Positions 19,712-24,425 of a stretch of DNA of 36,216 nt are shown one piece after another. Origin of the DNA: an uncultured Eubacterium sp. (GTDB lineage: Bacteria; Bacillota; Clostridia; Lachnospirales; Lachnospiraceae); NCBI GenBank assembly GCA_905236235.1, contig CAJOPA010000102.1:1-36216 (forward strand), in the 5' to 3' direction. The notes beneath the pieces were generated by a model that made no database searches, had not been told where the DNA came from, and was given only the letters and a program-made list of their open reading frames with translations. The translations under genes and the position numbers were made by a program. Each line of letters begins with the position of its first letter. The first letter of the stretch is position 1.

Positions 19712-21201
19712 TCCACTGCCTCCCCGTCGGTTGCGCCTTCGCCTTCCACAGTCTCACCGTCTGCGGCCTCGCCGTCTGCAAGTTCACCGTCCGCAAGCTC
19801 ACCGTCCGTGCTTTCAACGTCCGTGCTCTCGCCGTCCGTGGTAACGCCCAGCATTTCATCGATCTCTTCCTGCGTGAAGAGTTCCGTCAGATCATCCACG
19901 CCGTAAAGGAGCTTCAGATCATCCTCCGTCATCTGGTAGCCGTCTTCAAACATGTAATCGATATCCAGATCTTCCAGCTCGGAGGACATGTCACTGTACA
20001 TTTCCTCGTACATCGGCGAAGAATAATCCACTTCATCCTCACTGGTAACGCATATCACACCTTCATACAGGCAGGACATCGCCACGGCGATATAATCGGA
20101 TTCGCTTAAGCCCTCCAGGATCTCGTATCTGCCGGAATTTTCATCATAATTGCCGATCGTTACGTTACGCTTTTCAAGCTTACCGTTGTCATTGCGCGCC
20201 CAGACATAGGTCTCGTTCTCATCCATCACAAGATAGGACATATCCAGCCAGATGCCCTCGAGCGCCGTCGTGTCCTGACCGTAATCCAGCTCGATATACA
20301 CGTGCTGTCCCACAATCAATCCGTCCGTGCTGTCAAGCTCCACATAGAACGGGTACTTGCTGCTCGTGGTGGAGGAAGAGCTGTCACTTGAATAATACAT
20401 GCTTGATGAAGAACTATTCTCGGGATTTTCCGTATCGATCTCCGAGATCGTACCCGTCCAGGTAATACTCTCGTCCACTCTGGAGCGGATGATCACATCC
20501 TGTCCCGCGGACAGGCTCCAGATGTTCTGCTCGTTAATGGTGCCCTTCACCCGATAAGATCCCGTCGCCACAATGGTGATAAAGTCTCCGTCGCCGGTGC
20601 CGTTTGTCACATAGGACGTGTTTAACGTCTTGATCACGCCATCCATGGAAGCCGTGACTTCCACATTGGCGATGGAAGCCTGCAGTTTTTCGATCTCCAG
20701 GCTCTTTAATTTTTTATTGTTCTGTACCTGCTGGATGCTCATCTGCACGGACTGGATCTGGGTGGTGTATTCAAACTGCTCACCCTCCAGTGCCTGATCC
20801 CTCTGGGCCGCCAGCTCTGCGATCTGATTGTTGTATCCCGCGATCTCATTGTCATAGGATTCCAGATCAAGCTGCGCCTGCGCAAGCTCGCTCTCAAGCT
20901 CCGCGGTATCATACGTAAAGAGGATATCCCCTTCCTTTACTTCATCACCGACCGATACGTAAACCTCCGCGATCTTCCTGTCGCTTGCCGGATTTACCGC
21001 TACGGTCTTTTGCGTCTCCACAATACCCATGTAGGAATTTTGCGTTCCATAGGTCTGGTTAACAATGGAAGAAACGGATTGCACATAGACCTTATCCGAA
21101 GAGCTCTCTTCCAGAATGCCGGACTTATACACGCCAAAAGCGGCGGCTGCCACTACTGCTGCCGCAATTACGACACCCACGATCACTTTGACAACTTTCA
21201 T
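19708..21201 (-). CDS. HlyD/MacA-type adaptor with acidic pentapeptide-repeat C-terminal tail
   Basis: 497 aa; N-terminal TM; IAEVYVSVGDEVKEGDILFTYDTAELESELAQAQ; tail TDGESTDVESTDGELADGELADGEAADGET; stop/start overlap (ATGA) with ATPase gene. Confidence 0.85.
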   Translation of the reverse strand: MKVVKVIVGVVIAAAVVAAAAFGVYKSGILEESSSDKVYVQSVSSIVNQTYGTQNSYMGIVETQKTVAVNPASDRKIAEVYVSVGDEVKEGDILFTYDTAELESELAQAQLDLESYDNEIAGYNNQIAELAAQRDQALEGEQFEYTTQIQSVQMSIQQVQNNKKLKSLEIEKLQASIANVEVTASMDGVIKTLNTSYVTNGTGDGDFITIVATGSYRVKGTINEQNIWSLSAGQDVIIRSRVDESITWTGTISEIDTENPENSSSSSMYYSSDSSSSTTSSKYPFYVELDSTDGLIVGQHVYIELDYGQDTTALEGIWLDMSYLVMDENETYVWARNDNGKLEKRNVTIGNYDENSGRYEILEGLSESDYIAVAMSCLYEGVICVTSEDEVDYSSPMYEEMYSDMSSELEDLDIDYMFEDGYQMTEDDLKLLYGVDDLTELFTQEEIDEMLGVTTDGESTDVESTDGELADGELADGEAADGETVEGEGATDGEAVE

Positions 21202-21214
21202 ACATCATTCTCCT

Positions 21215-21253
21215 TATACTATCTGTATTAATTCTCTTAATACAGATAGTATA
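21215..21253. promoter_or_regulatory. Perfect 17-bp inverted repeat (putative operator)
   Basis: TATACTATCTGTATTAA-ttctc-TTAATACAGATAGTATA (plus strand), spanning from the -10 box to the SD of the HlyD gene. Confidence 0.7.
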
Positions 21254-21358: not shown

Positions 21359-22246
21359 ATGTGGATCACCGATACCTGGAAAGATTATGAAGTCCTCGAC
21401 ACGGGGGACGGAGAAAAACTGGAGCGCTGGGGCGACTATCTGCTGATACGTCCGGACCCCCAGGTCATCTGGCATGCCCCTCGCAAGGACCGCGAGTGGA
21501 AACATCCCAACGGACATTACCATCGCAGCAGTAAGGGCGGCGGATCTTGGGAGTTTTTTGATCTGCCGGAACAGTGGGACATCCGCTATGACCTCGCCAT
21601 AGGCAAGACGCTGACCTTTCGTTTAAAGCCCTTCCAGTTCAAGCATACGGGACTGTTCCCGGAGCAGGCTGCCAACTGGGATTGGTGCGGCAAGCGGATC
21701 GCAGACGCCGCACAAAGCGGCAGACAGATCAAGATCCTCAATCTCTTTGCCTATACCGGCGGCGCCACCCTGGCCGCTGCCGCAGCAGGTGCCCACGTGA
21801 CCCATGTGGATGCCTCCAAAGGCATGGTGACCTGGGCCAGAGAAAACGCTGCCGCCTCCGGTCTGGCCGAAGCGCCGATCCGCTGGCTCGTGGATGACTG
21901 CGTCAAATTTGTGGAGCGAGAGCTTCGTCGCGGCAATCACTACGACGGGATCATCATGGATCCGCCTTCCTACGGCAGAGGTCCCAAAGGGGAGCTCTGG
22001 AAGCTCGAGGACAACATTCACGATCTCATCCGCCTGTGCGCCGGGCTTTTATCCGAGGATGCCCTGTTTTATCTGATCAACTCCTATACCACCGGTCTGT
22101 CTCCGGCGGTGCTGACCTATATGCTCTCCACGGAGTTAAAGGCACGCGGCGGCCGGGTCGAAAGCAGCGATATCGGACTTCCGGTTACAAAAACCGGCCT
22201 TGTCCTTCCCTGCGGAAGCACCGGCCGGTGGGAAACAACGTCCTGA
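21359..22246 (+). CDS. Class I SAM-dependent methyltransferase (RlmI/RsmB-like fold, rRNA-MTase-like)
   Basis: 295 aa; KILNLFAYTGGATLAAAAAGAHVTHVDASKGMVTWARENA; DGIIMDPPSYGRGPKGE (DPPSY catalytic motif); SD AAAGG. Confidence 0.85.
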   Translation: MWITDTWKDYEVLDTGDGEKLERWGDYLLIRPDPQVIWHAPRKDREWKHPNGHYHRSSKGGGSWEFFDLPEQWDIRYDLAIGKTLTFRLKPFQFKHTGLFPEQAANWDWCGKRIADAAQSGRQIKILNLFAYTGGATLAAAAAGAHVTHVDASKGMVTWARENAAASGLAEAPIRWLVDDCVKFVERELRRGNHYDGIIMDPPSYGRGPKGELWKLEDNIHDLIRLCAGLLSEDALFYLINSYTTGLSPAVLTYMLSTELKARGGRVESSDIGLPVTKTGLVLPCGSTGRWETTS

Positions 22247-22652: not shown

Positions 22653-23015
22653 CTATGCTTTAAAATCAACGGAATGACCGAGGATCGGATTGTAAAGGAT
22701 CTCCTCCGGAACATCTTCATCTTCCGGTCGCCGCAGCCTTTTGGCTCTCAAGGTAACTTCCTGCGGTTTGTGATCCCTTATGGCGGTTTCTTTTTCCGAA
22801 GTTGCGACGGCTTTGATGCGGTTTTCTTTTTCTTTTTCCCGCTTCGTCTCTTCGTGACTGTAAACCACTGCCTTTTGCGTTTCCATGGCCTTTTCCATAA
22901 CGGAAACAAATCTTGCGATATTATTTCCGGCATTCGGCGATGCTTCGAGCGCCGTTTGCATCTGCACCGGATCATAGAATACGGGCGGACCGTTCAACTG
23001 TACTGTTGAGATCAT
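22653..23015 (-). CDS. Hypothetical protein (120 aa, highly charged)
   Basis: ORF with strong SD GGAGGGATTTTTATG and own terminator; no family recognised. Confidence 0.65.
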   Translation of the reverse strand: MISTVQLNGPPVFYDPVQMQTALEASPNAGNNIARFVSVMEKAMETQKAVVYSHEETKREKEKENRIKAVATSEKETAIRDHKPQEVTLRAKRLRRPEDEDVPEEILYNPILGHSVDFKA

Positions 23016-23016
23016 A

Positions 23017-23079
23017 AAAATCCCTCCTTTCTACCTTCTATATCGGCAAAACTTATGTAAAGTTAACAGGAGGGATTTT
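23017..23079 (-). promoter_or_regulatory. 12-bp inverted repeat masking SD of 120-aa ORF, with sigma28-like promoter in its loop
   Basis: Minus AAAATCCCTCCT - 39 nt - AGGAGGGATTTT; loop has TTAA-N15-GCCGATAT. Confidence 0.6.
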
Positions 23080-23118: not shown

Positions 23119-23772
23119 TTACATGATCTTGATGTTGGGATCCACTTCAAAATCCGCGCCGGTCCTTGCCCGGATCTCGGAAACGCTGACACCGTCTCTG
23201 CGCTCCCGGAGCATCAATCCCTTTTCTTTATCCACGGTAAAGACCGCAAGCTCGGTCACGATGGACTTGACCACGCCCACACCGGTTAACGGCAAAGAAC
23301 ATTCCTTTACGATCTTCGGCTCGCCGTCCTTGGTGCAATGATCCGTAGCAACGATAACATTTTTGATACCGCTGACAAGGTCCATGGCGCCGCCCATGCC
23401 CGGATAGGAACCGGGACGTGCCCAATTGGCCAGGTCTCCGTACTGGGATACCTCGAAGCATCCGAGCACCGTGTGTTTGATCCTGCCGCGGCGAATCATA
23501 CCAAAGGAGGTGCACATACCAAAGCAGCTGGCACCGATGACAAGCTCCACGGTATTGCCGGCAGCGTTAAAATACGGCTCCTCCGGCTCATTGCCGCCGA
23601 TCACCTTGCCGTAACCGAGGATCCCGTTCTCCGTCTGTACGGCAACGTCCTTGCTTAAATAATTGGCCACCTGCATGGGGATCCCCACGCCGAGGTTTAC
23701 AACATCACCGTCACTGAAATAGGTTGCTATCTTTCGTGCGATAAAATCGCGATTCATTTCTCTTTCCGTCAT
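23119..23772 (-). CDS. atoA: 3-oxoacid/butyrate-acetoacetate CoA-transferase subunit B
   Basis: MNRDFIARKIATYFSDGDVVNLGVGIPMQVANYL...VQTENGILGYG (ENG active-site glutamate); start corrected. Confidence 0.88.
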   Translation of the reverse strand: MTEREMNRDFIARKIATYFSDGDVVNLGVGIPMQVANYLSKDVAVQTENGILGYGKVIGGNEPEEPYFNAAGNTVELVIGASCFGMCTSFGMIRRGRIKHTVLGCFEVSQYGDLANWARPGSYPGMGGAMDLVSGIKNVIVATDHCTKDGEPKIVKECSLPLTGVGVVKSIVTELAVFTVDKEKGLMLRERRDGVSVSEIRARTGADFEVDPNIKIM

Positions 23773-23783
23773 GGCTTTTCTCC

Positions 23784-24425
23784 TTAAAGATTCGGATCTA
23801 AGATCATATCCACATAGATGCCCGGGGTGGTACATTCCTCAGGCTTTAACCCGCCGAGCGGTACGATCTCATCCACCTGTACGATGGTCTTATCCGCTGC
23901 CGTGGCAATGATGGGATTGGAATTTAAGTTGGTGCCGTTATAGGTCAGATTGCCGTAGTAATCCGCCTTGGAGGCTTTGATCAGCGCAATATCCGCCGTC
24001 AGCGCCGGCTCTAAGATATAGGTCTCCCCGTTTAATTCGATCTTTTCCTTGCCTTTCTCCGCAACGGTCCCGAAACCGACCTTCACAAGAATGCCGCCCA
24101 GGCCCACGCCGCCGGCGCGGATCCTCTCGGATAACGTGCCCATGGGGCAAAACTCCACGTCGAATTTGCCGGAGGAAACCGCGGCGAGATTTTCCTTCAC
24201 CGCACCCGCATGGGAAATAATCATCTTGTCAAAACGCCCCGTCAGCATCAGCTTGGATGCGCTGACATCGAGCGCGATATTGGTCAAATGCTTTGCACCG
24301 CTCTCCAGCACGCATTCGATCAAAAGTTCCGGACTGCCGTGATAGGCAAATCCGCCGGTCATGATGGTCTGTCCGTCATGAAATTGTGCAATGATCTCAT
24401 CCTTGGAATATCTTTTACTGATCAT
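23784..24425 (-). CDS. atoD: 3-oxoacid/butyrate-acetoacetate CoA-transferase subunit A
   Basis: FHDGQTIMTGGFAYHGSPELLIECVLESG...GTLSERIRAGGVGLGGILVKVGFGT...PALTADIALIKASKADYYGNLTY. Confidence 0.88.
   Translation of the reverse strand: MISKRYSKDEIIAQFHDGQTIMTGGFAYHGSPELLIECVLESGAKHLTNIALDVSASKLMLTGRFDKMIISHAGAVKENLAAVSSGKFDVEFCPMGTLSERIRAGGVGLGGILVKVGFGTVAEKGKEKIELNGETYILEPALTADIALIKASKADYYGNLTYNGTNLNSNPIIATAADKTIVQVDEIVPLGGLKPEECTTPGIYVDMILDPNL

What the first reader, a model, noticed from the sequence alone, without database searches (positions are those of the whole stretch)
23017..23079. Perfect 12-bp repeat masks an SD and carries a sigma28-like promoter in its loop
Minus strand AAAATCCCTCCT-(39 nt)-AGGAGGGATTTT-TATG. 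The right arm is the Shine-Dalgarno of the 120-aa ORF (22653-23015). The loop contains TTAA-N15-GCCGATAT, and GCCGATAT matches the flagellar sigma28/SigD -10 consensus exactly. Inference: read-through RNA from the upstream CoA-transferase genes would hide the SD (and, since the right arm ends in TTTTT, could terminate), whereas transcripts starting at the internal promoter lack the left arm and leave the SD open. That would restrict translation to the dedicated promoter.
Basis: partly seen in the sequence, partly recalled or inferred. Interest (0 to 1): 0.75.

Follow-up and report, generated by a model that had tools for sequence, protein, structure and literature searches.

The report
Flagellar-type promoter inside SD-masking hairpin
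A small gene in a motile gut-type bacterium has its own flagellar-sigma-factor promoter placed inside an RNA hairpin that would hide its ribosome-binding site only in messages running in from the genes upstream; the promoter is well supported, but the hairpin is found in this genome alone and could equally be the upstream operon's terminator.

Summary
On the minus strand, AAAATCCCTCCT (23079-23068) and AGGAGGGATTTT (23028-23017) are perfect 12-bp arms around 39 nt. The right arm is the SD of the 120-aa ORF, and the loop holds TTAA-N15-GCCGATAT. It is the longest SD-overlapping stem among about 360 gene starts in 407 kb of this genome (about 0.04 expected). The sigma28 half is well supported: the genome encodes sigma28, its flagellin genes carry such boxes, and the only clear ortholog (G002, 46% identity) and a weak, partial relative (G336) have sigma28 boxes upstream of their SDs. 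The ORF also looks monocistronic. The masking half is plausible but weaker. Predicted cost of opening the SD is about 16 kcal/mol in read-through RNA and about 4 in sigma28-initiated RNA. However, the left arm is absent from the ortholog, no sister CoA-transferase operon has it, and 338 family genomes give no convincing second case. The hairpin also sits 39 nt after the CoA-transferase stop and has A/U-tract arms like this genome's terminators, though its loop is far longer. Best reading: a lineage-specific insulator that keeps the gene sigma28-only, by SD masking, termination or both. The logic is that of phage T4 gene e and I-TevI.

The parts
23119..23835 (-). CoA-transferase subunit ORF (238 aa), last gene of the upstream co-directional pair; its stop is 39 nt before the left arm
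   Evidence: PF01144 108.5 bits; coordinates
23784..24425 (-). CoA-transferase partner subunit ORF (213 aa)
   Evidence: PF01144 169 bits
23068..23079 (-). Left arm AAAATCCCTCCT; present only in RNA arriving from upstream
   Evidence: absent at the ortholog
23063..23066 (-). sigma28-like -35 element TTAA (consensus TAAA; extended TTAACTTT)
23040..23047 (-). sigma28-like -10 element GCCGATAT; predicted start about 23035-23032 (inferred from usual spacing)
   Evidence: matching boxes at L004 (TAAAGTTT-N11-TCCGATAT) and L007 (TAAACTTT-N11-GACGATAT)
23017..23028 (-). Right arm AGGAGGGATTTT = Shine-Dalgarno plus U-tract
   Evidence: AAAGGAGG-ATTTTTATG conserved in the ortholog
22653..23015 (-). 120-aa ORF, no confident family match; predicted mostly helical at low confidence
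   Evidence: ortholog at 46% identity
22588..22623 (-). Terminator-like hairpin (10-bp arms, then T run) after the ORF, consistent with a monocistronic unit
   Evidence: fold z -3.4

Best explanation
The 120-aa ORF is a monocistronic, sigma28-dependent (motility-regulon) gene. Its promoter lies inside the loop of a hairpin whose right arm is its own SD. RNA that runs in from the CoA-transferase genes carries both arms, so the SD is paired, and polymerase may also stop at the U5 tract; either way no protein is made. RNA started by sigma28 begins after the left arm, so the SD stays accessible. The hairpin is therefore an insulator that makes expression depend on sigma28. Shown by sequence: the arms, SD, promoter match, sigma28 gene, conserved box and predicted energies. 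Inferred: real read-through, the transcription start, the block itself, and that it is selected.
For: sigma28 gene at 261 bits, cut-off 189.6; six flagellin-domain genes and nine chemoreceptors in the genome; sigma28-like boxes upstream of flagellin and other flagellar genes. The box is conserved, with the same 23-24 nt to ATG, at the ortholog, and a box also precedes the weak relative. SD opening cost 16.0 kcal/mol in read-through RNA versus 3.4-4.5 for starts 5-9 nt after the box. Longest SD-overlapping stem among about 360 gene starts. Own terminator-like hairpin downstream. The upstream genes are co-directional, no other terminator-like site was found in the gap on this strand, and the left arm is 39 nt past the stop, beyond a terminating ribosome's reach (general knowledge).
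Against: The left arm is absent at the only clear ortholog, where opening the SD costs just 2.5 kcal/mol in a read-through RNA. The pattern anti-SD + sigma28 box + SD matched only this site and one other match, judged unrelated, in 338 family genomes. About 0.04 such stems are expected by chance in the 355 genes sampled. Geometry and position also fit a plain terminator. No RNA data.
Confidence: 0.5

Rival explanations
1. The hairpin is simply the intrinsic terminator of the CoA-transferase operon. Its right arm plus U5 happens to be shared with the SD of the next gene, and the sigma28 promoter happens to lie in its loop. SD masking would be incidental.
For: It lies 39 nt after the stop codon, in the range where most other long inverted repeats in this genome occur (about 7-54 nt after a stop, many with A-rich left arms). 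U5 closes the right arm. No other terminator-like site was found on this strand between the stop and the ATG. At the weak relative L007 a terminator-like hairpin also overlaps the sigma28 promoter.
Against: The 39-nt loop is far longer than the loops of 4-10 nt seen in most of the long stop-codon-proximal hairpins in this genome, and a long loop should fold slowly relative to a polymerase pause (general knowledge). The simple terminator scan did not call it (that scan allows loops only up to 8).
Confidence: 0.3
2. The left arm is a chance complement of the SD, with no function; only the sigma28 promoter and the SD are real features.
For: Not conserved in the ortholog or in sister CoA-transferase loci. 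About 0.04 such stems expected in 355 genes, roughly 0.2 per genome. The finding was picked out of a long window after the fact.
Against: Longest by 2 bp among about 360 gene starts, z -4.1, and at the place where an insulator or terminator is expected.
Confidence: 0.17
3. A conditional RNA switch: the hairpin in the read-through RNA is opened by a ligand, protein, small RNA or temperature, so that the gene is also expressed from upstream.
For: A stable SD-sequestering hairpin is the general form of such switches (general knowledge).
Against: No Rfam family near significance (best E 0.54); no alternative pairing partner seen at the ortholog; a 12-bp stem costing about 16 kcal/mol to open is too stable for a simple thermosensor (inference).
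Confidence: 0.03

Closest known systems
Phage T4 gene e (lysozyme) and I-TevI leader hairpins (PMC3014915, PMC2988022)
   Same: Long upstream transcripts form a hairpin that sequesters the SD; a promoter for an alternative sigma factor lies so that its transcripts lack the 5' arm and are translated.
   Different: Phage late genes with measured repression (about 100-fold for e) and with similar leaders in related phages; here a bacterial chromosome, sigma28, whole promoter within a 39-nt loop, no measurement, left arm not conserved.
Tn10/IS10 and IS200 protection from impinging transcription (IS200: PMC3196728; IS10 from general knowledge)
   Same: Hairpins form in RNA entering from outside and terminate it or hide the SD.
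   Different: Those are transposase genes of mobile elements; this ORF has no transposase match and the element is single-copy.
Lachnospiraceae-type sigma28 flagellin promoters (PMC3720852)
   Same: TAAA-N15/16-CCGATAT-type boxes in the Butyrivibrio/Roseburia/Eubacterium group.
   Different: Those drive flagellin from farther away (mean 139 bp to the start codon); this promoter is 24 nt from the ATG and sits in a hairpin.

Membership tests
sigma28 (FliA/SigD) promoter | -10 GCCGATAT-like and -35 TAAA-like with the usual spacing | tested here: met
   -10 exact; -35 TTAA (one mismatch); consensus in PMC3720852
sigma28 (FliA/SigD) promoter | Genome encodes sigma28 | tested here: met
   TIGR02479 261.4 bits over cut-off 189.6
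sigma28 (FliA/SigD) promoter | Box retained upstream of related genes | tested here: met
   L004 TCCGATAT and L007 GACGATAT with TAAA -35; only one clear ortholog, L007 is a weak homolog
sigma28 (FliA/SigD) promoter | Mapped start just downstream, lost without sigma28 | not testable with these tools
   needs 5'-end mapping
Start-site-dependent SD masking (T4 e / I-TevI type) | Hairpin pairs the SD in the long RNA | tested here: met
   opening cost 16.0 kcal/mol, prediction only
Start-site-dependent SD masking (T4 e / I-TevI type) | Dedicated promoter downstream of the 5' arm, short RNA leaves SD open | tested here: met
   promoter at 23066-23040 lies after the left arm; 3.4-4.5 kcal/mol in short RNA, prediction only
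Start-site-dependent SD masking (T4 e / I-TevI type) | Upstream transcription that reads into the gene | tested here: inconclusive
   co-directional CoA-transferase genes with no other terminator-like site found in the gap; no RNA data
Start-site-dependent SD masking (T4 e / I-TevI type) | Hairpin retained in relatives (supporting, not defining) | tested here: not met
   absent at G002/L004
Start-site-dependent SD masking (T4 e / I-TevI type) | Measured translational repression of the long RNA | not testable with these tools
   needs reporter fusions
Intrinsic terminator | GC-containing stem with U-tract, shortly after a stop codon | tested here: met
   39 nt after the stop, U5 at the end of the stem
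Intrinsic terminator | Short loop | tested here: not met
   39 nt, versus 4-10 nt in most long stop-proximal hairpins of this genome

The most novel reading that the evidence does not exclude
A cellular, chromosomal version of the T4 gene e device: an alternative-sigma promoter nested in the loop of a dual terminator/SD-masking hairpin, acquired when a motility gene landed behind a metabolic operon, so that the cell uses transcript start choice as a gate on translation. A similar start-dependent hairpin at the weak relative in G336 would make it a recurring solution.
Probability: 0.25. Interest if true: 0.6.

Novelty: new member of a known kind. Interest (0 to 1): 0.4.

Why it matters
If true, it would show that the promoter-inside-hairpin insulation known from phage T4 also guards a bacterial sigma28 gene against read-through from a neighbouring metabolic operon. 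It would also be a compact, testable case of an operon boundary enforced at the RNA level. Separately, it adds a small, rarely found protein to the likely sigma28 regulon of this lineage.

Tried and rejected
(1) More orthologs: 61 relatives, 397 family genomes with 2- and 3-row profiles, genome contigs and viral contigs gave only G002 and the weak G336 match; the E 0.02-1 hits were not pursued. (2), a family scan for masked sigma28 sites, used a spacer one base too short and missed the window itself; it is void and was redone. (3) Known RNA family: none. (4) Protein identity: no Pfam or NCBIfam match over cut-off; the AlphaFold model is low confidence (pLDDT 59, pTM 0.23), so no fold search was made. 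(5) Repeat or mobile element: single copy; the short secondary matches that were inspected fall in unrelated genes. (6) A partly matching AAAAATCC upstream of the ortholog's promoter was considered as a decayed left arm and rejected: it does not pair with the SD in the predicted folds.

Full report
Observation. The arms are perfect over 12 bp with 39 nt between them. The read-through RNA folds at -24.2 kcal/mol, z -4.1. Among 360 gene starts with an SD in 407 kb of the same genome this is the longest perfect stem that overlaps an SD; the runners-up are 10 and 9 bp. A control that pairs each SD with other genes' upstream regions expects 0.04 stems of this length in 355 genes. The feature is therefore unusual, but not so improbable that chance is excluded for a whole genome.

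Promoter. The genome (1.6 Mb, 134 contigs, 87% complete) encodes a sigma28 protein (261 bits), six flagellin-domain genes and nine chemoreceptor genes. Sigma28-like boxes stand upstream of flagellin and other flagellar genes in it, and such promoters are described for the Butyrivibrio/Roseburia/Eubacterium group (PMC3720852). The finding's box is the best-scoring one upstream of any sampled gene start. The single clear ortholog of the ORF (G002; the same sequence is in the MAG Eubacterium sp. RUI358) has TAAAGTTT-N11-TCCGATAT, 23 nt before its ATG, against 24 nt here. The -10-to-ATG stretch is nearly identical between the two, while the sequence upstream of the -35 is not. A weak, partial relative in another genus (G336, E 3.8e-4) has TAAACTTT-N11-GACGATAT. 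I regard the sigma28 promoter as very likely real. A terminator-like hairpin follows the ORF, so the unit looks monocistronic.

Hairpin. In a read-through RNA the cost of freeing the SD is about 16 kcal/mol. In RNA started 5-9 nt after the -10 box it is 3.4-4.5 kcal/mol, the remainder coming from pairing with other sequence near the start codon and in the coding region. At the ortholog the corresponding costs are 2.5 and 0.3-0.9, so there is no masking there. The left arm is absent at the ortholog. The sister CoA-transferase operons (G002, G005, G001, 80-86% identity) are followed by other sequence without the hairpin or this ORF. The simplest reading is that the ORF with its promoter and SD moves as a unit and that the left arm belongs to the present junction (inference from three genomes). 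A scan of 338 family genomes for anti-SD + sigma28 box + SD found this site and one other match that I judge unrelated. An unmasked form of the pattern, restricted to a TAAA -35, had a match in 105 of 338 genomes, part of which is background since the reversed control also matches. Masking is therefore not a family-wide design.

Terminator or mask. Most long inverted repeats in this genome lie within about 55 nt after a stop codon, many with A-rich left arms. This one lies 39 nt after the CoA-transferase stop, has A4 and U5, and fits that picture except for its 39-nt loop. It may terminate read-through, mask the SD in what escapes, or both. All three give the same outcome, that upstream transcription does not express the ORF. 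At the weak relative in G336 a terminator-like hairpin begins in or next to the sigma28 -10 box: the whole hairpin is worth -17.7 kcal/mol, but only -6.8 if transcription starts 6-8 nt after the box. This is a parallel, not proof.

Comparison. The logic is that of T4 gene e and I-TevI, where long early transcripts mask the SD and late-promoter transcripts lack the 5' arm (PMC3014915, PMC2988022). The present case works like these on paper, but repression, read-through and start site are unmeasured and the hairpin is not conserved.

Noticed in passing
window 21215-21253: Perfect 17-bp inverted repeat with a 5-nt loop (TATACTATCTGTATTAA) just upstream of the 497-aa ORF that starts at 21201 on the minus strand and near the divergent methyltransferase ORF at 21359; operator-like.
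   Followed up: no
L007 1731-1830 (G336): A terminator-like hairpin starts in or next to a sigma28 -10 box upstream of a weak relative of the ORF, so that sigma28-started RNA would keep only part of it.
   Followed up: partly
L087 3965-3990 (G000 C13): An 11-bp hairpin with a 4-nt loop lies upstream of a cheC-like gene near the sigma28 gene; it does not appear to include that gene's SD.
   Followed up: partly
window 22653-23015 and L004 1483-1860: The 120-aa protein is rare: one clear ortholog in hundreds of family genomes, with no Pfam or NCBIfam match over cut-off.
   Followed up: yes
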